A DNA stretch of 58,446 nt from Solirubrobacter phytolaccae (GTDB lineage: Bacteria > Actinomycetota > Thermoleophilia > Solirubrobacterales > Solirubrobacteraceae). Numbering within the stretch: the stretch's first letter is position 1; the number at the start of each line of letters is the position of its first letter. Made by a program: the position numbers and the translations under genes. The DNA lies in the NCBI RefSeq assembly GCF_027587195.1, contig NZ_JAPDDP010000047.1, positions 1 to 58,446 on the forward strand, in the 5' to 3' direction. Of this stretch, positions 45,833-58,446 are shown piece by piece. Under the pieces are notes generated by a model. It had not been told where the DNA came from and did no database searches. It saw nothing but the letters and a program-made list of their open reading frames with translations.

Positions 45833-46998
45833 GCGCCGAGGGCGCGGCCGTTCGTGCGGTCTACGCGGCGTTCGCCGTCAACGGCTTCGCGTTCGCCAGC
45901 TGGGCGTCCCGGATTCCGCAGGTCAAGGACCAGCTCGAGCTGAGCGCGGCGGAGCTGGGGTTCGTGCTGTTCGGGATCGCGGTCGGCTCGGTCGTCGGGC
46001 TGCCGCTGTCCGGGCCACTCATCCATCGGTTCGGCTCGCGGCGGGTGGTGATGACGGCGAGCGCGGTCGGGGGGTTCGGGCTGATCGGCGCCGGCGCCGG
46101 GATCGAGGCGGGCGTGCTCCCGGTCGTCGCGGCGCTTGTCCTGACCGGGTACGCGATGGCGAGCTGGGACGTCGGCATGAACGTCCAGGGCGCGCTCGTC
46201 GAACAGCGGATCGGGCGGTCGATCATGCCGCGCTTCCACGCGGGCTTCAGCCTCGGCACGGTCGCGGGCGCGCTCGGCGGCGTGGCGATGGTCGCGCTGG
46301 GCGTGCCCGTCTCCGTGCACCTGGCCGTGGTCGGCGTGGCCGTGACGCTGGGATTGCCGCTCGCCGTCCGCGCGTTCCTGCCCGACCGGGAGGCGCACGA
46401 GGAGCCGACCGACCACGGGATGAAGGCCTGGGGCGAGCGCCGCACGCTGCTCGTCGGCGTGTTCGTGCTGGCGTTCGCGTTCGCCGAGGGCGCCGGGAAC
46501 GACTGGATCGGCGTCGCGTTGATCGACGACTACGGCGCGCACGAGGCGGTCGGCACGCTCGGGCTCGCCGCGTTCCTGACCGCGATGACGATCGTGCGCT
46601 GGATCGGCCCGGACCTGCTCGCCAAGCACGGCCGCGTGAAGGTCGTGCGCGGGCTGGCCGTGATCTCGGTCGCCGGGCTCACGCTGTTCGTCTTCGGACC
46701 CAACGTGGAGACCGCGATCGCCGGCGCCGTGCTGTGGGGCGCCGGGCTCGCGCTCGGGTTCCCGGTGGGGATGAGCGCCGGGGCGGATGACCCGGCGCTC
46801 GCCGCCCCGCGCGTGAGCGTCGTCTCCTCGATCGCCTACTGCGCGTTCCTCGCCGGTCCGCCGGGAATCGGGTTCCTCGGCGAGCACAGCTCGGTGACGC
46901 GGGCGCTGATCGCGGTGATCGTGCTGCTCGGGCTCGCGGCCCTGATCGCCGGGACCGTGCGGCCCCTGGCTAGCTCCCCGCCACCGCCACGACGATGA
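45829..46998 (+). CDS. MFS transporter
   Basis: 389 residues, GTG start overlapping the CDF stop. Twelve hydrophobic segments. The start reads AVYAAFAVNGFAFASWASRIPQVKDQLELS, the hallmark of the FucP/YbjJ-like MFS branch. The loop between helices 2 and 3 has PLIHRFGSRRVV. A putative sugar or drug transporter; the substrate is not evident. Its end overlaps the convergent membrane protein gene by 29 bp. Confidence 0.88.
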   Translation: MSAEGAAVRAVYAAFAVNGFAFASWASRIPQVKDQLELSAAELGFVLFGIAVGSVVGLPLSGPLIHRFGSRRVVMTASAVGGFGLIGAGAGIEAGVLPVVAALVLTGYAMASWDVGMNVQGALVEQRIGRSIMPRFHAGFSLGTVAGALGGVAMVALGVPVSVHLAVVGVAVTLGLPLAVRAFLPDREAHEEPTDHGMKAWGERRTLLVGVFVLAFAFAEGAGNDWIGVALIDDYGAHEAVGTLGLAAFLTAMTIVRWIGPDLLAKHGRVKVVRGLAVISVAGLTLFVFGPNVETAIAGAVLWGAGLALGFPVGMSAGADDPALAAPRVSVVSSIAYCAFLAGPPGIGFLGEHSSVTRALIAVIVLLGLAALIAGTVRPLASSPPPPRR

Positions 46999-47485
46999 CC
47001 AGGATGTAGAGCGCCCAGAAGAACAGGCCGATGCCGACGAGGACCTTGTCGAGCGTGTCCAGCGGCGCGTCGGTCGCCTGGCCGTTGGTGGCGGCCCGGT
47101 GCGCGTCGTTCAGCCGCGACTGCACAGACGGGTACGTGAACAGCGCGACGAACGGGATGATGATCGTCAGCACGAAGTACAGGACGACCGAGAAGCTCTG
47201 CGAACGGGCGCGCTGGGCGTACTTGTCGATGTCCTGCCAGGCCAGGAACAGCATCACGTAGTTGACGATCGGGATGATCATCAGCACGGTGCGCAGCCCG
47301 GGGGAGGGCGGCGGCTGGTTGACCCTGGAGGAGACCTCCTTGGTCGTGTGGTACATCCAGGCGAAGGACCAGAGCCCACCGCTGGCGATCAGCAGCAGGA
47401 TGCACTTCCCCACGCTGCGAATCACCGCGGTGCTCTCGGAACCCTGCGGTTGCTGCGCGTAGCTGTCCGGCATCGCTGTGGTCAT
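46970..47485 (-). CDS. small membrane protein (DUF4234-like), last gene of the eight-gene operon
   Basis: 171 residues. A Gln/Ser-rich N-terminus, then four hydrophobic helices (~24-46, 64-84, 98-122, 146-170). The first reads SVGKCILLLIASGGLWSFAWMYHTTKEVSSR, the pattern of DUF4234-type proteins. Its ATG overlaps the stop of the upstream glycosyltransferase-like gene (ATGA). Role unknown; it might anchor or export the product of the glycosyltransferase operon. Confidence 0.75.
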   Translation of the reverse strand: MTTAMPDSYAQQPQGSESTAVIRSVGKCILLLIASGGLWSFAWMYHTTKEVSSRVNQPPPSPGLRTVLMIIPIVNYVMLFLAWQDIDKYAQRARSQSFSVVLYFVLTIIIPFVALFTYPSVQSRLNDAHRAATNGQATDAPLDTLDKVLVGIGLFFWALYILVIVVAVAGS

Positions 47486-48213
47486 GTGCGCATCAGTACC
47501 GCGCGGGCGTGCTGGTCGTCAAGTTGGCGCGGGAACGCGACCGCGGTGTGCCGGTCCCGGTAGGGCTCGGTCTCGTGCATCGCATTGAAGCCGGCGCCGG
47601 TGATGATGCGCTCGGCGTGGGCGAGGTGCGGCTCGGCCGGGTACACGTCGTGGTGGCGCGGATGGACGACGACGGTGTTGCCTTCGGCGAGCGCGAGCAG
47701 CTGCTGGAGCTCGTGATCCGGGCCGGCGTGGACGACGAGCGTGTGCGGCTGCGACGCGAGCGGCTCACCGGGCGGCGCGTGGGGGAGCGTGAGCGGCTCG
47801 ACCGGCCCGGGCGGGTCGTAGCCGAGCTCCTCCAACTGGTGCACGGTCGCGTACCGCGGGAGCGGCCCGTCGAGCCGCTGCGCGTACACGTCCCAGCGCA
47901 GCCGCCGTGCGATCAGCCGCGCGCTGGGAAGCTCCAGCCCGCACAGCTCGCCGAGCACGCCGCCGGGGAACGCGTCTACGAGCAGCTCATCGGGCTGAAG
48001 GTCGGCGAGGAGCGCCTCGATCCAGCCGCGGAACGCCGCCCGTTCGTGCCCGAGCCGTCTCGGCACGGGGATGACGGGCCGCCCGGCGGTGACCCGCGGG
48101 TCCCGCGCATGGCCCGAGGCCGTGAGCAGCACCGCGTCTTCACGGTCGCCGAGCACCTTGCGCGCCCGCGTGAGATGCCCCAGCCCGCCGCCCAGGGCGT
48201 AGTAGAGGATCAC
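47482..48213 (-). CDS. MGT-like predicted glycosyltransferase (short)
   Basis: 243 residues from the GTG at 48213, overlapping the upstream stop (GTGA). Starts MILYYALGGGLGHLTRARKVL, the GT-B N-terminal nucleotide-independent glycine loop of MGT/MurG-like enzymes. It ends with LVVHAGPDHELQQLLALAEGNTVVVHP and ERIITGAGFNAMHET, the nucleotide-sugar side motif. It is shorter than usual (350-400) because both Rossmann halves are compact. Probably transfers a sugar to the same acceptor as the two GT4 enzymes of the operon. Confidence 0.75.
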   Translation of the reverse strand: MILYYALGGGLGHLTRARKVLGDREDAVLLTASGHARDPRVTAGRPVIPVPRRLGHERAAFRGWIEALLADLQPDELLVDAFPGGVLGELCGLELPSARLIARRLRWDVYAQRLDGPLPRYATVHQLEELGYDPPGPVEPLTLPHAPPGEPLASQPHTLVVHAGPDHELQQLLALAEGNTVVVHPRHHDVYPAEPHLAHAERIITGAGFNAMHETEPYRDRHTAVAFPRQLDDQHARAVLMRT

Positions 48214-49355
48214 GTCGCAGGAAGATAAACGTCCAGGACGTTTAACTTCGTGTGGGTCAGCGCGTCGACGTAGGCGTCGAGCTCCGCGTCGCCGTCGAGG
48301 GTCGTGCGGGCGAGCTGGCGGCAGGCCTCGGCCATGCGGTCGTGCTCGGCGGGCTCGAGGCGGGCGGCGCGTTGGAGGGCCCAGGCGGCGCGGGCCTCGT
48401 CGCCGGGCTCGAACAGGAAAGCGGTCTCGCCGTCGGTGAGCACGTCGGCCATCCCGTCCACGCGCGAGGCGAGCATCGGCACGCCCAGCGCCGCCGCTTC
48501 GACTAGCACGTTCGGCAGGCCGTCGTAGAAGCTCGGGATCGCGAGCCAGTCGCACGCCGCGTACCAGGGCAGCAGCTCGTAGCGGTCCAGGAACGGCAGC
48601 GTCGTCACTTCCAGCTCGCCGTCGTGGTCGGCGAGCCACGCCTCCATGTCCGGCGCCATCCAGCCCGCGAGCAGCAGGTGGAAGCGGTCGGCGACGCCGG
48701 AGCGGGTGAGCGCGTCGAGCAGGAAGACGCCGCCCTTCTTGGCCTTCAGCTGACCGAAGAGTCCGAGCGTGAGCCGGTCGTGCGACGCGCGGAACTCCGC
48801 CGCCTGGGCGAGGTCGGAGGGCGCGAGCGTCCAGTCGCGCTCGATGCCGTTCGGGATCCAGCGCGTGGGCGTGGCCGGGTGCATGGCGGCGATCCGCTCG
48901 ACCTTCGAGCGCGAGTTCGCGATCACGAGCGTGGAGCGGTGCAGCGCCTCGTCGAGGATCGGCCGCCGGCGCGTGGAGAAGACCGCGGCGTCGAAGTCGT
49001 TGCCGCGGATCAGGGTGATCAGGGGCACGCCGAGCCAGGCGGCGAGCACCGGGCCGGCCATGATCGGCCGCGAGCCGCCGAACGCCACCACGTGCGTGTA
49101 GTCGACCGGCCGGGCCTGCAGCGTGGTCCAGGCGCGGTTGAGCGCGTGCGCCGGGTCGTCCTCGATCGGGCACGCGAGGTAGCGACCGCCCGCCTGCTCC
49201 TCGATCGTCCACGCGCGCCCCCGGGCGGTGGGGACGAAGTGCAGGACGTCGACGAGCACGCCGCGCCGGCGCAGCCCGCGCACGATCCGGTCGCACGACT
49301 GCGCCATCCCGCCCCGGCTCGGCGGGTAGGTCTCAGTCAGCCACAGCGCTCTCAC
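48210..49355 (-). CDS. family 4 glycosyltransferase
   Basis: 381 residues, GTG start overlapping the previous stop. GT-B fold: N-terminal MRALWLTETYPPSRGGMAQSCDRIVRGLRRRGV; C-terminal donor domain with LGLFGQLKAKKGGVFLLDAL and the E-x7-E region PSFYDGLPNVLVEAAALGVPMLAS. Retaining enzyme using a nucleotide sugar. The 3' end encodes a perfect 19-bp palindrome. Second of two GT4 genes in the operon. Confidence 0.9.
   Translation of the reverse strand: MRALWLTETYPPSRGGMAQSCDRIVRGLRRRGVLVDVLHFVPTARGRAWTIEEQAGGRYLACPIEDDPAHALNRAWTTLQARPVDYTHVVAFGGSRPIMAGPVLAAWLGVPLITLIRGNDFDAAVFSTRRRPILDEALHRSTLVIANSRSKVERIAAMHPATPTRWIPNGIERDWTLAPSDLAQAAEFRASHDRLTLGLFGQLKAKKGGVFLLDALTRSGVADRFHLLLAGWMAPDMEAWLADHDGELEVTTLPFLDRYELLPWYAACDWLAIPSFYDGLPNVLVEAAALGVPMLASRVDGMADVLTDGETAFLFEPGDEARAAWALQRAARLEPAEHDRMAEACRQLARTTLDGDAELDAYVDALTHTKLNVLDVYLPAT
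48226..48244. repeat. 19-bp perfect palindrome in the 3' end of the GT4 gene
   Basis: TAAACGTCC-A-GGACGTTTA (48226-48244). It lies within the last codons of the GT4 gene (KLNVLDVYLPAT) and 13 bp before the start of the next gene. The same layout (TAAA-N3-CC-A-GG-N3-TTTA) is found at 10265-10283. Could be a terminator or pause hairpin that sets the level of the two last genes. Confidence 0.5.
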
Positions 49356-49696
49356 GAGTCGCCGAAGCCGCCGCCGTCGTCATCGTCGTTGCCCTCGTAC
49401 CAGCGGTAGTCGGTGTCGTTCCAGTACGGGTCCGACGTGCCCCACCAGACCGGCGAGTAGTTGCTCGAGCCGTACCAGCGCTGGCGGGAGCGGATCGCGT
49501 AGGTGGTCGAGGTCTCGTCGAGCGCCGCGTCCTCGGAGCGCTTGGCGACGCACTCGACGCACAGGCCGGCCTGCGTGATGTGCTCGGCGCAGATCCGCCG
49601 CGAGCAGGCGCTGCAGCTCGTGACCGCCGAGTTCGCGCAGTCGCGCAGCGTGAAGAAGCCCCGCTTGCAGGAGCACAGGTCCAGCGCGAAGCTCAC
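49352..49696 (-). CDS. Cys-rich putative zinc-binding protein (B-box-like)
   Basis: 114 residues from the GTG at 49696 (GTGA overlap with the upstream gene). The N-terminal half has nine Cys and one His arranged C-x-C, C, C-x2-C, C-x2-H, C-x2-C (CSCKRGFF, LRDC, SCSACSRRICAEHITQAGLCVECV), fit for one or two zinc sites as in B-box or cross-brace fingers. The C-terminal half is Trp/Tyr/Asp-rich (SPVWWGTSDPYWNDTDYRWYEGNDDDDGGGFGDS). Function unknown; possibly a protein-interaction adaptor for the neighbouring 253-residue protein. Confidence 0.7.
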   Translation of the reverse strand: MSFALDLCSCKRGFFTLRDCANSAVTSCSACSRRICAEHITQAGLCVECVAKRSEDAALDETSTTYAIRSRQRWYGSSNYSPVWWGTSDPYWNDTDYRWYEGNDDDDGGGFGDS

Positions 49697-50454
49697 AGCT
49701 TCTTCCTCCGCACCGGGGCCACGCGCTCGTAGGCGCCGGAGATGAGCTCGATCAGCGACTCGAGCTGGGGGACCGCATCCACCTGCTTGGCGACGAGGGT
49801 GCCGCCGACCGTGACCTTGGTGTGCTTGTCGCTCGGCTTGAGCTTCTGCTTGGGCAGCGGGCGCGACCCGGTGGCGGGCGCGTACAGGCGGTTGGGGACG
49901 GTGAGCGTGACCGTCATCTCCGTCTTCTTCTTGTTCTTGGTCTTGCGCTTGATCTTCCCGCGCGGGTTCTTCTTCTCTTTGAAGGTCGAGCGCACGTGGT
50001 CGATCACCGCGAACTGGAGCTGCGCGCCGTCGGCGAAGCGGGTGCGGACCTGCAGCCAGGCGTCGTCGTAGAAGGTGTCGACGACCTTGCGGTACGCGCC
50101 CTTCTTGTACGGCTCCGAGTGCCGCACGGCCTTCGTCGACACGAGTGGTCCTGTGAGATCGACCCACAGCTCCAGGGGCGCGCCGGGCTCCATGTCCTCG
50201 CGCAGGATCGGCAGCAGCGGGATCGCGAACGTCCGCAGGCCGTTGGGCACGTCGTTCTTGCGCGCGTAGCGGCGCTCGAAGAACCCGCCGCCGCCCGCGC
50301 GGGTCTCGTCGGCCTGGCGGTCGTAGTCGGCGATCGGGCTGAGGAGCGCGAGCCACTCGTCGGGACTGCGCGCGCCGGAGAAGCGGCGGGCGCGGACGAT
50401 GTCCTGCTGCTCCGGGCTGAGGGCGTTGAACGCCTGCTTCACGCGGTTGGCCAC
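49693..50454 (-). CDS. hypothetical protein in glycosyltransferase operon
   Basis: 253 residues, not recognised. The helical N-terminus has NRVKQAFNALSPEQQDIVRARRFSGARSPDEWLALLSP, followed by a Gly-rich loop (AGGGGFFERRYARKND). A beta region (RTFAIPLLPILREDMEPGAPLELWVDLTGP) and a long Lys/Arg-rich segment (FKEKKNPRGKIKRKTKNKKKTEM) could contact membrane or nucleic acid. Starts 16 bp inside the end of the upstream GT4 gene and overlaps the Cys-rich gene by 4 bp. No signal peptide. Confidence 0.65.
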   Translation of the reverse strand: MANRVKQAFNALSPEQQDIVRARRFSGARSPDEWLALLSPIADYDRQADETRAGGGGFFERRYARKNDVPNGLRTFAIPLLPILREDMEPGAPLELWVDLTGPLVSTKAVRHSEPYKKGAYRKVVDTFYDDAWLQVRTRFADGAQLQFAVIDHVRSTFKEKKNPRGKIKRKTKNKKKTEMTVTLTVPNRLYAPATGSRPLPKQKLKPSDKHTKVTVGGTLVAKQVDAVPQLESLIELISGAYERVAPVRRKKL

Positions 50455-51572
50455 GCGGGCATCCTCTCACCGTAAAGCCGTTGGAGTCGAGCCACGCTCG
50501 CGTCCCACGTCAGGTGCGCCTGCACGTGCGCCCGCGCCGCGGCGCCCATCCGCTCCCGCTCCTCGGGGTAGTCGAGCAGGACGCGGATCGCCCGCGCCAG
50601 CTCGCCCGGCCGGTCCGGCGCGACGAGCCGGCCGTGCACGCCGTCCGTGAGCAGCTCGCGCACGGCGGGCAGGTCGGAAGCGACGACCGGCACGCCGGCG
50701 GCCATCGACTCAAGGATCTTCAGCGGCGCGCACCCCTGCACGGCGTTGCGCGAGCAGTCCCGCAGCGGCGCGAGCGACAGCAGCGCGTGGTCGCGCCACG
50801 GCGCGAGCTCCTCCTCGGGCAGCGCGAAGTGCCAGTGCACGCGCGCCTCGATCCCGAGCTTCTCCGCGAGCTTGCGGTACGGCTTGGCGCGGCGCTGGTG
50901 GACCGACGCGCAGATCACGAGGTCCAGCTCCAGCCGGGCGACGGCACGCAGGGCGGTGTCCACGCCCTGCCACGGCTGCAGCGCGCCGAAGTACAACAGG
51001 TAGGGGCGGTCGAGTGCCGGTCGCTCGCTGCGCGGCCGGAGCTCGGCGCCGTTCGGCACCACGTGGGCGGGCACCGGGAGCCGATCGGCGGTCACCTGCG
51101 ACGGCGTGATGACCAGGTCGGCGGCGTGCAGGCAGCGGAGCTCCATCTCGGCGATCTGCTCCAGCAGGGCGTTGGGGATCGCCGGATACAGGAACGGCAG
51201 CTCGATCGACGGCAGCCCGTTGACCTCGTAGACCTTCAGGTGGTCCCCGTCGTGCTCGACGATCGGCAGCCCGCTCCACGGGTCGCGGAAGTGGGCGATC
51301 TCCAGGTCGGGCAGCTCGTCCAGCAGCGCGCTGAGCCGCGCGCCGTAGCCCGCGGCGCGCTCGAGCACGTGGTCGGCCTCGCGCATGTAGCGGACGATCT
51401 CGACGTCGCCCTCGCGCTGGTAGCTCGGCAGCCCTTCGCCGCCGAGCACGTACAGCAGCCCGCCGCCGCTCCGCTCGAACAGGGCCCGGGCGAAGCGGTC
51501 GATGTGGACGGCGCTCCCCTTGCGCGACGGGAAGCGGTCGAACGCGGCGTAGAGCGCCCGCGCGCCCCTCAC
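50439..51572 (-). CDS. family 4 glycosyltransferase
   Basis: 377 residues from the GTG at 51572 (GTGA overlap with the oxidoreductase stop). GT-B fold with N-terminal ALYAAFDRFPSRKGSAVHIDRFARALFE. Donor-site half: RPYLLYFGALQPWQGVDTALRAVA, and the E-x7-E region GCAPLKILESMAAGVPVVASDLPAVRELL. First of two GT4 enzymes here. The sugar and acceptor are not predictable. Confidence 0.9.
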   Translation of the reverse strand: MRGARALYAAFDRFPSRKGSAVHIDRFARALFERSGGGLLYVLGGEGLPSYQREGDVEIVRYMREADHVLERAAGYGARLSALLDELPDLEIAHFRDPWSGLPIVEHDGDHLKVYEVNGLPSIELPFLYPAIPNALLEQIAEMELRCLHAADLVITPSQVTADRLPVPAHVVPNGAELRPRSERPALDRPYLLYFGALQPWQGVDTALRAVARLELDLVICASVHQRRAKPYRKLAEKLGIEARVHWHFALPEEELAPWRDHALLSLAPLRDCSRNAVQGCAPLKILESMAAGVPVVASDLPAVRELLTDGVHGRLVAPDRPGELARAIRVLLDYPEERERMGAAARAHVQAHLTWDASVARLQRLYGERMPAWPTA

Positions 51573-53050
51573 TTCAGTGCCGCGCGCGCGGCTGCATCTC
51601 CCGGTACGCCGTGGACGGCTCCGCCGGGGAACGCGGCGGCGCTCCCGATGAACAGCCCCTTCAAGGGCGTCGAGTACGGCGTGAGCTTCGGCAGCGGGCG
51701 GAACACGACCTGGTGCAGACGATAACTGCCGCCACCGACGTCGCCGCCGACGAGGTTCGGGTTGCGCGCCTCCAGCCCGGCGGGGCTGAGGACGTGCCGC
51801 GCCAGGATGCGGTCGCGGAAGCCCGGCGCGAAGCGCTCGACCTGCGCCTCCATGCGCTCCACCACCAGCGGCGTGTCGCGCTCCCAGTCGACGCCCTGCT
51901 GCGGGCCGTGCGTGTACGCCCAGGCGGTGTGCTTGCCCTCGGGCGCGCGCGTCGGGTCGGCGACGCTCTGCTGGCCGAGCAGCAGGAACGGATGGTCGGA
52001 GAGGCCGTCGTGGGCCTGCTTGACCGAGTGCAGGAACTCGTCCTCGCCGCCCGCGACGTGCACGGTGCCGGCGCCGCTCACGGCGGGGTTCGCCCACGGG
52101 ATCTGCCCGTCCAGGGCCCAGTCGACCTTCACGGTGGAGGCGCCGATGATGTACCGGTTGAGCGCGGTCGAGTACCACTTCGGCAGGTCGGCCATCTTGG
52201 TCAGCGCGCCGGGCATGACGTCGCCGATCACGGTCTTCGCCTCGAACCGCTCGTCCGCGGTCTCGACGCCGGTGACGCGGCCGTTCGCGCTGGTGATGCG
52301 GGTGACGCGCGCGTTGGTGCGGATCTCGCCGCCAAGGCTCTCGAAGTAGCTCACGAGCGCGTCGGTCAGGTGCTGCGCGCCGCCCTTGGGCGACGGCCAG
52401 CCGACCGCGTGGCCGAGCAGGTTCAGGTAGAAGGCGGCGATCGCCGAGCCCGCGCCGTCCGGCGGCGTGTCGCCGTGCATCGCGGCTCCGTAGAGCCACG
52501 CGCGCGAGCCCTGGTCCTCGAACAGGCGCTTGCCGAGGCCGACCGCGCTGCCCGGCAGCAGCCGCGCGAAGTCCAGCAGCCGCAGGGGGCCGGCGCCCGT
52601 CAGCAGCTTGATCGGCCCGCCGACGGGCGGGAAGCCGGTCAGCATCGTCGCCTTCACGGCTTCGAAGTTGTCCAGGAACGGCTTGGCGAACTTGACCCAC
52701 TTGGGACCGTCGACCGGGCCGAGGCTCTCGGCGGTGCGCAGCAGCGAGCCGTAGAGGAGCTTCGCCTCGCCGTTCGGCAGCGGGTGCGCGTACGCGGCCT
52801 CCGGGTGCACCCACTCCAGGCCGTGCTCGGCCAGCGGCATGCGGCCGAACACGGGGGAGGCGGCGCTCGCGGGGTAGACGGAGCTGAACGTGTCGTGCTT
52901 GAAGCCCGGCAGCGTCAGCTCCTCGGTGCGGACGGCGCCGCCCGGTGCGTCCGAGGCTTCGAGGATGAGCACCTGGCGGCCGGCCTCGGCGAGCCGGATC
53001 GCTGCGGCCAGGCCGTTGGGCCCGGCGCCGATGACGACCGCGTCGCTCAC
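51569..53050 (-). CDS. phytoene-desaturase-like FAD-dependent oxidoreductase
   Basis: 493 residues from the GTG at 53050. N-terminal dinucleotide motif DAVVIGAGPNGLAAAIRLAEAGRQVLILEA with the second motif GGAVRTEELTLPGFKHD; C-terminal FAD motif LFIGSAAAFPGGAVHGVPGDAAARAAL. This is the CrtI-like group of actinobacterial NAD(P)/FAD oxidoreductases that act on isoprenoid or other hydrophobic substrates. No crtB or other carotenoid gene is near, so a carotenoid role is not supported. The substrate may be the lipid acceptor that the glycosyltransferases decorate. Confidence 0.88.
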   Translation of the reverse strand: MSDAVVIGAGPNGLAAAIRLAEAGRQVLILEASDAPGGAVRTEELTLPGFKHDTFSSVYPASAASPVFGRMPLAEHGLEWVHPEAAYAHPLPNGEAKLLYGSLLRTAESLGPVDGPKWVKFAKPFLDNFEAVKATMLTGFPPVGGPIKLLTGAGPLRLLDFARLLPGSAVGLGKRLFEDQGSRAWLYGAAMHGDTPPDGAGSAIAAFYLNLLGHAVGWPSPKGGAQHLTDALVSYFESLGGEIRTNARVTRITSANGRVTGVETADERFEAKTVIGDVMPGALTKMADLPKWYSTALNRYIIGASTVKVDWALDGQIPWANPAVSGAGTVHVAGGEDEFLHSVKQAHDGLSDHPFLLLGQQSVADPTRAPEGKHTAWAYTHGPQQGVDWERDTPLVVERMEAQVERFAPGFRDRILARHVLSPAGLEARNPNLVGGDVGGGSYRLHQVVFRPLPKLTPYSTPLKGLFIGSAAAFPGGAVHGVPGDAAARAALK

Positions 53051-54123
53051 TTGGTCGGCGCCCCGAGCGCGATCGCGATCTGGTGCAGCATGCTGACCTC
53101 GGGGTCCTCGCCGACGCCCCAGAACGCGTGCTGCGCGTCCTTGCCCTGGCTCTCGTACGCCTTGCTCAGGTGCCAGCTCATCGGGTCCCACGTGCCGGCG
53201 GCGCGGACGTAGGCCTTGCCGTCGAGCGTGTAGAGCACGAGGCGGTTGTGGCCGGAGCCCATGAAGTGGCCGGCGTGCGTGGTCAGGTCGAAGCCGACGA
53301 GCGGCTCGCCGCCCTCGGGCACGATCGACGGCTCGCCGTGCTCCTTCATGCCGACCTCGAGCGCCTCGAACCAGTTGTGCAGCGCCTTCTGGTCGTCGGG
53401 GGTGACGAGCGTCGTGATCGTCACGTAGCCGCGGGTCCACAGCGGCACGGCCTTGTCGTAGCCGGCGACGACCTCGATCTCGAACGTCTGGCCGAGCAGC
53501 CCGCCCGGGCGCAGCGGCGTGAAGCGGCCCAGCGCGCTGGCGTACTCCGGCCACGTCTCCGGCTGGGTGATCGCGGCGATCAGCCCCTCGGCCGACGGCA
53601 CCTCGACGGGGTCGTAGGTGTGCCAGACCTGCTGGTCCAGCGGCGCGCTCTCGGCGGTGAGGTCGCCGATCTTGGCCAGCTTGAACCGGTAGCTATGGTC
53701 GTAGGCCGCCTTGTCCTCGGGCGTCTCGAACGCGATGCCCCAGCCCTTCCGGGCCGGGTCGGCGTAGGCGGCCGGGAACCAGTCGCCGAGCAGGGTGACC
53801 GCGCCGCGCTCCAGCGCCTCACGGCTCAGGCGGCCGTTCGCGGCGAACCGCTCGGCGCCGAACGCCTTGTGGAAGGCGGGAAGATCGGTCACGCGCAGCC
53901 GGCGCGTCGGGTCCTTGCGGTACCAGTAGGTCGTCAGCACGCTGAAGGCGAACCGCAGATCGTCGGCCTGGCGCTCGGCCGGCTCGCGCCGGTAATAGGC
54001 CGCGTTGAGGAAGTCGGTGACCCAAGGAGCGGCGTCACGGCCCGCGATCGAGGAACCGGCCATGCGGGCGAAGCCCAGGGCGCCGGGCTGATTGGCGGTG
54101 TTCGTCTCGTCAGTCGTCGTCAT
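53047..54123 (-). CDS. hypothetical protein, first gene of the eight-gene operon
   Basis: 358 residues, not recognised; no signal peptide or membrane helix. A helical N-terminal part (WVTDFLNAAYYRREPAERQADDLRFAFSVLTTYWYRKDPTRRLRVTDLPAFHKAFG) is followed by a beta-rich part (GLLGQTFEIEVVAGYDKAVPLWTRGYVTITTLVTPDD, GEPLVGFDLTTHAGHFMGSGHNRLVLYT) that looks like a lipid-binding or lipase-like beta barrel. Overlaps the oxidoreductase start by 4 bp, so the two are likely a functional pair. An inverted repeat lies 20 bp upstream of its start. Confidence 0.7.
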   Translation of the reverse strand: MTTTDETNTANQPGALGFARMAGSSIAGRDAAPWVTDFLNAAYYRREPAERQADDLRFAFSVLTTYWYRKDPTRRLRVTDLPAFHKAFGAERFAANGRLSREALERGAVTLLGDWFPAAYADPARKGWGIAFETPEDKAAYDHSYRFKLAKIGDLTAESAPLDQQVWHTYDPVEVPSAEGLIAAITQPETWPEYASALGRFTPLRPGGLLGQTFEIEVVAGYDKAVPLWTRGYVTITTLVTPDDQKALHNWFEALEVGMKEHGEPSIVPEGGEPLVGFDLTTHAGHFMGSGHNRLVLYTLDGKAYVRAAGTWDPMSWHLSKAYESQGKDAQHAFWGVGEDPEVSMLHQIAIALGAPTK

Positions 54124-56755: not shown

Positions 56756-58446
56756 ATGTCGACCCTCGCCATCCCTCAGCCGCGCCACCGGGCCGGTTCT
56801 CTCTCGGCGCTCCGCGCGCTCGTGTCCAGGCCCGAGTTGGTGCTGCTGCTGGTGCTCGCCGGCGGGCTGAACCTGTGGGCGCTCGACCTCAACGGCTACG
56901 CCAACGACTACTACGCCGCGACCGTGCGGTCGATGACGCAGTCCTGGCACGCGTTCCTGTACGGCTCGTTCGACGCGGCCGGGCTGCAGACGGTCGACAA
57001 GCCGCCGCTCGCGTTGTGGGTGCAGGCGCTGTCCGCGCGCGCGTTCGGGTTCAACTCGTGGGCGCTGCTGGTGCCGCAGGCGCTGATGGGCGTGGCCACG
57101 GTCGCGTTGACCTATGACCTCGCGCGCTCGCGCTTCGGCCGTGCCGCCGGCTTCGTGGCCGGGGTGACGCTGGCGCTGACGCCGATCACGGTCGCGATGT
57201 CGCGCCACAACAACCCGGACGCGCTGCTCGTGCTCTGCCTCGTGGCGGCCGTGTGGGCGCTGGATCGTGGCCTGCGGCAGGGCGGTTCTCTGAAGTGGCT
57301 CGTGTGGGCCGGCGTGTTCGTCGGGCTCGGGTTCGAGACGAAGATGGCGGCGGCGCTGATGGTCGTCCCGGGCATGGCGCTCGCGTGGTTCTGGGTCGCG
57401 CCTCGCGGTCGGATGATCGCCTTCAAGCAGCTGCTCGTGGGTGGAGCCGCCATGGCGGCAGTCGGCCTGGCGTGGCCGGTGCTGATGTGGCTCACGCCCG
57501 CCAGTGACCGTCCCTACATTAGCGGCACCGACGACAACTCGATCTGGTCGCTGATCCTCGGCTACAACGGCCTCGGCCGACTCTTCGGCCAGGACGGCGG
57601 GCCTGGCGGTGGCGGCGGCATGGGTGGCGGCGGCGCGACGTTCGGCGGCGAGGCCGGCCCGACGCGCCTGCTCAACGCCGCACTCGGCGGCCAGGCGGGC
57701 TGGGTGATCGGCTTCGCGCTGGTCGCCGGCCTCGGCGTGCTGCTGATGAGCAAGCTGCGCCGCACGGACGAGCGCACGGGCTACGTGATCGCCGTCGGCG
57801 GCGCGTTCCTGGTCACCGCGGTCGCGTTCAGTCGCGCGGAGGGCATCTTCCACCCGTACTACGTCTCCGCGCTCGCGCCGTTCACCGCGCTACTCGTCGG
57901 CGCCGGTTGGAGCCTCATCCGCCACCGCGCCTGGGGTCCGCTGCTGCTCGCGGGCGGCATCGCCACCGAGCTGGTCGTGATCGCCAACGCGGCGACCGAC
58001 CTCGACTGGATGACGGGCGTGCTGCTCGTCGGCGGCGCGCTCGCGGCCGTCGGCATCGTGTTCGCGCCCAAGCTGCGCACGGCCGCGGCGACCGCGGGCA
58101 TCGGGCTGCTGCTGCTCGCGCCCGCCTCCTGGGCGGTGCAGACGCTCGGCCACGCGACGAGCTCGACGTTCCCCGCGGGCGGCCCGACGTCCTCGATGGG
58201 CATGGGCGGCGGCGGTCGCGGCGGGTTCGGTGGCGGCCAGCCGCCGGCCGGCATGACCCCGCCGAGTGGGAATGGGCCGGGCACCGCCAACGGTGGCGGG
58301 TTCGCGCCGGGCGCGGGCGGCGCGGCGGGCGGCCAGTCCGGCTCGTCCGGCACGAACAGCGGCGGCGCGGCCGGCGGTGCGAACGGCAGCTGCGGCCCGG
58401 GGTCGAGCCGGGCGCGCGGCGGTTGGCCGACGCGCTGCGAGCGTGC
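56756..58446 (+). CDS. GT39/ArnT-like membrane glycosyltransferase, C-terminus cut by window end
   Basis: At least 563 residues from the ATG at 56756. Many membrane helices. Conserved family parts: LDLNGYANDYYAATVRSMTQSW with the catalytic Asp of the first loop, TVDKPPLALWVQALSARAFG and TVAMSRHNNPDALLVLC. A Gly-rich lumenal insertion (GGPGGGGGMGGGGATFGGE, ~281-300) and a second Gly/Ser-rich stretch near 480-540 are typical of the actinobacterial YkcB-like mannosyltransferases, which use polyprenyl-phosphate sugars to glycosylate surface protein or lipid. Near 58399 the frame becomes Arg-rich while the next frame reads VEPGARRLADALRAC, which hints at a missing G. Confidence 0.85.
   Translation, partial: MSTLAIPQPRHRAGSLSALRALVSRPELVLLLVLAGGLNLWALDLNGYANDYYAATVRSMTQSWHAFLYGSFDAAGLQTVDKPPLALWVQALSARAFGFNSWALLVPQALMGVATVALTYDLARSRFGRAAGFVAGVTLALTPITVAMSRHNNPDALLVLCLVAAVWALDRGLRQGGSLKWLVWAGVFVGLGFETKMAAALMVVPGMALAWFWVAPRGRMIAFKQLLVGGAAMAAVGLAWPVLMWLTPASDRPYISGTDDNSIWSLILGYNGLGRLFGQDGGPGGGGGMGGGGATFGGEAGPTRLLNAALGGQAGWVIGFALVAGLGVLLMSKLRRTDERTGYVIAVGGAFLVTAVAFSRAEGIFHPYYVSALAPFTALLVGAGWSLIRHRAWGPLLLAGGIATELVVIANAATDLDWMTGVLLVGGALAAVGIVFAPKLRTAAATAGIGLLLLAPASWAVQTLGHATSSTFPAGGPTSSMGMGGGGRGGFGGGQPPAGMTPPSGNGPGTANGGGFAPGAGGAAGGQSGSSGTNSGGAAGGANGSCGPGSSRARGGWPTRCER

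What the first reader, a model, noticed from the sequence alone, without database searches (positions are those of the whole stretch)
46970..54123. Eight-gene overlapping operon with three glycosyltransferases and unknown proteins
From 54123 down to 46970 every junction overlaps, mostly as GTGA or ATGA, which implies tight co-translation. Order: unknown 358-residue protein, CrtI-like oxidoreductase, GT4, unknown 253-residue basic protein, Cys-rich zinc-type protein, GT4, MGT-like transferase, DUF4234-like membrane protein. I know no described pathway with this set. It could oxidise and then glycosylate a lipid or isoprenoid for the envelope. That product is inference only.
Basis: partly seen in the sequence, partly recalled or inferred. 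Interest (0 to 1): 0.65.

Follow-up and report, generated by a model that had tools for sequence, protein, structure and literature searches.

The report
Glycosyltransferase cassette joined to oxidoreductase pair
This eight-gene bacterial operon is two older gene sets joined end to end in one soil genus: an oxidoreductase with an unknown partner, and a five-gene sugar-transfer cassette that holds two unnamed protein families and also occurs on its own in distant relatives.

Summary
The eight genes and their overlaps are real in this genome, and the order is kept in 5 of the 7 genus genomes sampled (Solirubrobacter). The single-pathway reading is not supported: the operon is composite. Module A is the 358-residue protein plus a FAD oxidoreductase that fails the CrtI and CrtO cut-offs; gene 2 lies directly behind gene 1 in 22 of 26 loci. 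Module B is GT4, 253-residue basic protein, acidic zinc-type protein, GT4, short GT-B-like protein; its order is the same in 10 of 10 genomes read, including S. soli, two Patulibacter and two genomes of a distant actinobacterial family. Three of these were searched for gene 1 and lack it; S. soli has A and B on different contigs. Gene 8 is a fast-evolving genus add-on. The A/B seam overlaps in 1 of 5 genus operons. Best reading, inferred: module B is a compact glycan-assembly cassette whose basic and acidic proteins form an accessory complex; product unknown. Pfam, NCBIfam and PDB searches name none of genes 1, 4, 5 and 7.

The parts
53047..54123 (-). Module A gene 1: 358-aa protein of unknown family (P0001)
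   Evidence: No Pfam or NCBIfam match (relatives against Pfam); full-length matches in 14 of 61 genomes and matches in 18 of 296 genomes of the phylum
51569..53050 (-). Module A gene 2: FAD oxidoreductase of the CrtI/CrtO superfamily (P0002)
   Evidence: PF01593 70.7 bits over cut-off 19.8; under the cut-offs of CrtI (109 vs 238) and CrtO (161 vs 1000); directly behind gene 1 in 22 of 26 loci, one of them broken
50439..51572 (-). Module B gene 1: GT4 glycosyltransferase (P0003)
   Evidence: PF00534 92.2 bits; best PDB sequence match a D-inositol-3-phosphate glycosyltransferase, E 1e-14
49693..50454 (-). Module B gene 2: 253-aa basic protein of unknown family (P0004)
   Evidence: No significant family match; pI 10.2; long hydrophobic insert in the two Patulibacter copies; model pLDDT 78, no significant fold match
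49352..49696 (-). Module B gene 3: 114-aa acidic zinc-type protein (P0005), eight invariant Cys/His and an invariant C-terminal Asp-Ser
   Evidence: Alignment A8 of seven sequences; this protein has no Pfam match at E 1
48210..49355 (-). Module B gene 4: second GT4 glycosyltransferase (P0006)
   Evidence: PF00534 66.5 bits, PF13692 77.9 bits
47482..48213 (-). Module B gene 5: short GT-B-like protein (P0007)
   Evidence: GxGxGHxxRA N-terminus and DDQxxR C-terminus invariant in 7 sequences (resemblance to GT-B enzymes recalled); only a weak PF13528 match, E 0.07, in 2 of 7 members
46970..47485 (-). Trailing gene: DUF4234 membrane protein (P0008), genus-only add-on
   Evidence: PF14018 27.8 bits vs 25.3; not found beside the cassette in S. 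soli, Patulibacter, G218, G349; dN/dS 0.62-0.66

Best explanation
The locus is a composite operon, made inside the genus Solirubrobacter by placing a two-gene unit (A: unknown 358-aa protein plus FAD oxidoreductase) in front of a five-gene glycosyltransferase cassette (B), with a membrane gene (DUF4234) behind it. Shown: the separate conservation, order and distribution of the two units. Inferred: cassette B makes a short glycan or glycoconjugate at the inner face of the membrane, the two GT4 enzymes and the short GT-B-like enzyme adding sugars in turn. The basic 253-aa protein and the acidic zinc-type protein, coupled by an overlap of their genes in the ten module B loci, form an accessory complex that holds or regulates the transferases or their acceptor; in Patulibacter the basic protein carries its own hydrophobic insert. 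Module A does a separate redox reaction in which the 358-aa protein is a partner or substrate-handling subunit of the oxidoreductase. Co-expression in this genus is an expression link, not a shared pathway. About 0.9 for the composite structure and 0.45 for the glycan-assembly mechanism with an accessory complex; the figure below is for the whole statement.
For: Genes 3-7 in the same order in 10 of 10 genomes in which gene 4 was found and whose region I read: window, L026-L029, L030/L046 (S. soli), L032/L048 and L047 (Patulibacter), L049 and L051 (family f33) (gene 5 of f33 was cut short by my gene caller and read by eye, aligned in 52). Nearby genes change: histidine kinase, SMC-type and SRP54/FtsY-type GTPase, GGDEF/EAL protein and epimerase, or module A. 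Module A pair adjacent in 22 of 26 loci of six families, no other neighbour family in more than 3 loci. B without gene 1 in G024, G218 and G349. Gene 1 without gene 4 in 8 of 54 relatives outside the genus. Seam overlap in 1 of 5 genus operons. Genes 4 and 5 overlap by 1-4 bases, with the starts I chose, in all ten module B loci. pI of gene 4 products 9.8-10.7, of gene 5 products 4.4-5.6, six genomes. dN/dS 0.15-0.51 for genes 1-7 in two comparisons.
Against: The A-B adjacency has lasted in four independent genus genomes (genes 1-7 are 79-92% identical between the window and two of them), so a shared function in this genus is not excluded. In 4 of 26 loci gene 1 has no gene 2 behind it, and in one more gene 2 is broken. 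No activity, acceptor or donor is known for any gene. Gene 7's transferase identity has no significant library support. A complex of genes 4 and 5 rests on adjacency and charge only.
Confidence: 0.5

Rival explanations
1. One eight-gene pathway: the oxidoreductase oxidises a lipid or isoprenoid that the three transferases then glycosylate for the envelope.
For: All eight genes are kept in order and orientation in 5 of the 7 genus genomes sampled; several overlaps are kept.
Against: Gene 1 and gene 4 occur apart in every carrier found outside the genus and in S. soli; gene 2 is no CrtI or CrtO by cut-off and a CrtI over the cut-off lies elsewhere in the genome.
Confidence: 0.12
2. The small zinc-type protein is not an accessory but the acceptor: its invariant Gly/Asp tail ending in Asp-Ser is glycosylated in turn by the three transferases, giving a ribosomally made glycoprotein.
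For: It sits inside the cassette in 10 of 10 genomes; the terminal Asp-Ser and two Gly of the tail are invariant in 7 of 7 aligned.
Against: No gene of the cassette looks like a protease or exporter (though three of the five have no family); eight zinc-type ligands point to a folded intracellular domain; an acidic tail fits a docking peptide as well.
Confidence: 0.1
3. Module B is an ordinary fragment of a capsule or exopolysaccharide locus.
For: Two GT4 enzymes and a third likely transferase; epimerase-type genes near the cassette in Patulibacter and G218; a PMT_2/YkcB-like membrane glycosyltransferase three genes upstream of the window operon.
Against: None of the flanking genes scanned with Pfam is a flippase, polymerase or chain-length gene (only part of the flanks was scanned), and the flanks change from genus to genus while the five genes stay.
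Confidence: 0.18

Closest known systems
GT4 glycosyltransferases (MshA / GlgA type)
   Same: Genes 3 and 6 match Pfam Glycos_transf_1 well over cut-off; best PDB sequence matches are a D-inositol-3-phosphate glycosyltransferase (gene 3) and glycogen synthase (gene 6).
   Different: No NCBIfam model reached its cut-off among the 24 and 25 listed, so donor and acceptor are unknown.
CrtI / CrtO carotenoid desaturase-ketolase superfamily
   Same: Gene 2 is nearest to the CrtO and CrtI models and to phytoene dehydrogenase sequences in the PDB.
   Different: Far under both cut-offs; paired with an unnamed 358-aa partner; the genome's CrtI over the cut-off is elsewhere.
Compact bacterial glycan-assembly gene sets (general kind, recalled)
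   Same: Several transferases in a tight operon with accessory proteins.
   Different: Two accessory families without a Pfam or NCBIfam name, one of them zinc-type; no export or polymerisation gene recognised in the five-gene set.

Membership tests
GT4 glycosyltransferase (P0003, P0006) | Pfam Glycos_transf_1 over gathering score | tested here: met
   92.2 and 66.5 bits against 26.4
CrtI phytoene desaturase (P0002) | TIGR02734 score over 238.1 | tested here: not met
   109.1 bits; a gene elsewhere in the same genome scores 458.1
CrtO beta-carotene ketolase (P0002) | NF045689 score over 1000 | tested here: not met
   160.7 bits
Flavin amine oxidase superfamily (P0002) | PF01593 over gathering score | tested here: met
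   70.7 bits against 19.8
MGT / GT28-like glycosyltransferase (P0007) | Match to a GT-B family model or structure | tested here: inconclusive
   PF13528 E 0.07 in 2 of 7 members; no PDB sequence match better than E 1; no structure was predicted
Cross-brace zinc domain such as B-box (P0005) | Eight ordered Cys/His ligands | tested here: met
   C8, C20, C28, C31, C36, H39, C46, C49 invariant in 7 of 7; that these bind metal is not tested
Cross-brace zinc domain such as B-box (P0005) | Match to a curated zinc-finger model | tested here: inconclusive
   The window protein has none at E 1; relatives: C5HCH in 3 of 7 (best E 0.0092), zf-AN1 in 2 of 7 (best E 0.034)
DUF4234 (P0008) | PF14018 over gathering score | tested here: met
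   27.8 bits against 25.3
Wzx/Wzy or ABC-type polysaccharide locus (module B) | Export and polymerase genes within the five-gene set | tested here: not met
   Two GT4 and three proteins without family; none has several strongly hydrophobic segments in the window copy (one segment in P0006). Flanks were scanned only in part
Known fold for P0004 | Significant structural match | tested here: inconclusive
   Foldseek: 0 matches at E 0.001 or better; best VIA-align Z 8.1, about the tool's stated background

The most novel reading that the evidence does not exclude
The five-gene cassette is a new kind of genetically encoded glycoprotein maker: the small zinc-type protein is both scaffold and acceptor, sugars are built in turn on its invariant Gly/Asp-Ser tail by the three neighbouring transferases, and the basic 253-aa protein presents it at the membrane.
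Probability: 0.1. Interest if true: 0.72.

Novelty: new variant of a known kind. Interest (0 to 1): 0.42.

Why it matters
It turns one odd operon into two testable units. Module B is a rare but order-conserved five-gene cassette shared by distant actinobacteria, with two protein families that have no Pfam or NCBIfam name held between two GT4 genes. Such conserved sets can reveal new surface glycans or new glycosylated proteins. Module A pairs a carotenoid-desaturase-like enzyme with an unnamed 358-aa family in six actinobacterial families, which suggests an unrecognised two-component oxidoreductase. The split also shows what to delete separately.

Tried and rejected
Defence system: the only PADLOC matches under E 0.01 is gene 2 to a desaturase model (C3a186, E 5.6e-14), which I read as a superfamily match; the other two listed matches are at E 0.018-0.019. 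Plasmid carriage: no match for genes 4, 7 or 1 in 72,556 plasmids; gene 3 matched 148 plasmid records, all under 60% identity; the 30 listed are glycosyltransferases or unannotated. Viral contigs: 53 stretches matched a gene 5 pattern, none encoded a relative. Fold of gene 1: the model was useless (pLDDT 31.9, three close sequences). Fold of gene 4: usable model, but matches to actin-capping proteins, type III chaperones and YbjN lie at background Z; no fold is claimed. Weak matches not counted: short gene 1 hits in G026, G038, G047 and on a second G011 contig (the G038 and G047 ORFs look like methyltransferases by eye), and three gene 5 hits near E 4e-4 to 5e-4 in G227, G266 and G295, which I did not follow. 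Absences in the phylum and class searches are soft: only the best first-look candidates were scored (at most 9, 40, 11 and 6 per genome). Carotenoid role of gene 2 set aside as the simple reading. Papers: seven searches, listings seen only, no paper opened, no listed title or abstract start concerns these genes; most subscription journals are not held. In one search the pI rows are labelled one gene too high (rows 'P0005' and 'P0006' are genes P0004 and P0005), and its gene-6 identities and overlaps for G218 and G349 came from a wrong frame; one search gives corrected identities (44% to the window). The gene 4 start in G218 and G349 was set by hand at a non-start codon, which slightly affects its pI and identity. 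The first gene table used a poor caller and only one query protein and was replaced.

Full report
What was checked. The window lies in a 7.7 Mb genome whose genus mates include Solirubrobacter (contigs named have the same lengths as the contigs of G001, G004, G005, G006 and G024 that carry gene 4). Eight minus-strand genes run from 54123 to 46970 as described, all seven junctions overlapping. Outside the operon 7 of 26 same-strand neighbour pairs in the window overlap.

Gene identities. P0003 and P0006 are GT4 enzymes. P0002 is a FAD oxidoreductase of the CrtI/CrtO superfamily but far under both curated cut-offs. P0008 just passes for DUF4234. P0001, P0004, P0005 and P0007 have no significant match in Pfam or NCBIfam. 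Their relatives were scanned against Pfam only: nothing significant for P0001, P0004 and P0007, and weak zinc-finger matches (best E 0.009) for P0005. PDB sequence searches with profiles of the four families gave nothing better than E 0.3. P0007's transferase label rests on motifs that I recall from MurG/MGT-type enzymes plus a weak PF13528 match in 2 of 7 members.

Distribution. P0004 is in 7 of 61 genomes: 6 of the 7 genus genomes sampled and one family member, G024. P0001 is full-length in 14 of 61. In samples drawn evenly from the phylum, P0004 is in 2 of 296 genomes (own and G218), P0005 clearly in 2 of 396, the same two, with three weak hits not followed, and P0001 in 18 of 296. In the family of G218, 2 of 5 genomes have P0004, and in its class 2 of 66. 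The profiles contained G218 and G349 rows, so those hits are not independent there; one search used a profile without them. In some searches only part of the first-look candidates was scored, so absences are soft. A scan of the genome collection with P0005 patterns gave six loci, four Solirubrobacter and two Patulibacter; its patterns do not fit the G218 and G349 proteins.

Two modules. Regions around the hits were read with a codon-usage gene caller. Genes 3-7 keep the same order in 10 of 10 genomes: five genus operons (two with the same strain number), S. soli, P. minatonensis, P. medicamentivorans, G218 and G349. Identities between the window and G218 over aligned positions are 48% (gene 3), 28% (gene 4), 42% (gene 5), 44% (gene 6) and 43% (gene 7). 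Nearby genes change: a histidine kinase in S. soli, SMC-type genes and an SRP54/FtsY-type GTPase in Patulibacter, an epimerase and a GGDEF/EAL protein in G218. Genes 1-2 form another unit. In 26 loci examined (one of the genus operons, S. soli, eight other family members and 16 loci of other families) gene 2 lies directly behind gene 1 in 22, one of them broken (L038); L035, L039, L040 and L080 lack it there. The other genus operons also have it but were left out of this count as near relatives. Of the eight family members outside the genus with full-length gene 1, four have an intact gene 2 behind it (L033, L034, L036, L037). G024, G218 and G349 have module B and no gene 1; G313 has the A pair (L089) and no gene 4; G003 lacks genes 1 and 4; S. 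soli has A and B on different contigs, each more than 50 kb from the contig ends. The simplest history, inferred, is a fusion inside Solirubrobacter after S. soli branched off.

The seam. In the five genus operons the 4-base overlap between genes 1 and 2, the 16-base overlap between genes 3 and 4, and the 4-base overlaps between genes 4 and 5 and genes 7 and 8 are present in 5 of 5. The overlaps between genes 2 and 3 (the A/B seam) and between genes 6 and 7 are present only in the window. Between genes 5 and 6 the answer depends on the start chosen. Gene 8 is 55-60% identical where genes 1-7 are 79-92% identical, has dN/dS 0.62-0.66 against 0.15-0.51 (simple Nei-Gojobori, window against L026 and L028, no test), and G+C 0.653 against 0.722.

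Clues to mechanism. P0005 has eight invariant Cys/His columns in a cross-brace-like order and an acidic, Gly-rich tail whose final Asp-Ser is invariant in 7 of 7 sequences. It is acidic (pI 4.4-5.6) and P0004 is basic (pI 9.8-10.7) in six of six genomes computed (rows mislabelled as explained). The two genes overlap by 1-4 bases in all ten module B loci, with the starts I chose. P0004 of both Patulibacter species carries a strongly hydrophobic stretch of about 45-65 residues, long enough for two membrane helices; the window and S. soli copies have none, and G349 has a weaker C-terminal one. This suggests work at the membrane. AlphaFold gave P0004 a mostly helical N-terminal part followed by several long strands (mean pLDDT 78), with no significant fold match. 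From these I infer a P0004-P0005 accessory complex serving three transferases. No interaction was modelled.

Isoprenoid idea. The genome holds two SQS_PSY-type genes. One stands beside a CrtI over its cut-off (458 bits), a second CrtI/CrtD-like gene under its cut-offs and a CruF-like gene under its cut-off. P0002 is therefore not needed as the carotenoid desaturase; its substrate is open.

Verdict. What remains interesting is the rare, order-conserved five-gene cassette with two unnamed families, and the wider gene 1-gene 2 pair. The literature searches run here list nothing on them (listings only).

Noticed in passing
46970-46998: The last operon gene and the convergent MFS gene overlap tail to tail by 29 bases; convergent overlaps of 17-29 bases occur in the four other genus operons.
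   Followed up: partly
56840-58446 (+), and L026:14874-19000, L028:350-4695: A PMT_2/YkcB-like membrane mannosyltransferase lies beyond an amino acid permease upstream of the operon; in relatives a prokaryotic RING-finger protein (764 aa in L028, cut by the locus end in L026) lies next to it.
   Followed up: partly
L048:4381-7759 and L047:58-1800: In Patulibacter the cassette follows directly after SMC-type ORFs; in L048 the N-terminal and C-terminal SMC parts lie on two ORFs, a split gene or a frameshift.
   Followed up: no
L096:5175-9575: Carotenoid-type locus of the window's own genome: CrtI, phytoene-synthase type, CruF-like and a second CrtI/CrtD-like gene.
   Followed up: partly
L038:8354-8912: The gene 2 homolog behind gene 1 is broken in this family member (G011): two pieces in different frames, covering residues 3-236 of 493.
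   Followed up: no
L049:13098-14396 and L051:11768-13084: A protein with a signal-like start and weak BNR-repeat match follows the cassette in both f33 genomes.
   Followed up: no
G227, G266, G295 (L056-L058): Weak matches to the zinc part of gene 5 (E 4e-4 to 5e-4) in three other families; could be distant relatives or chance zinc ribbons.
   Followed up: no
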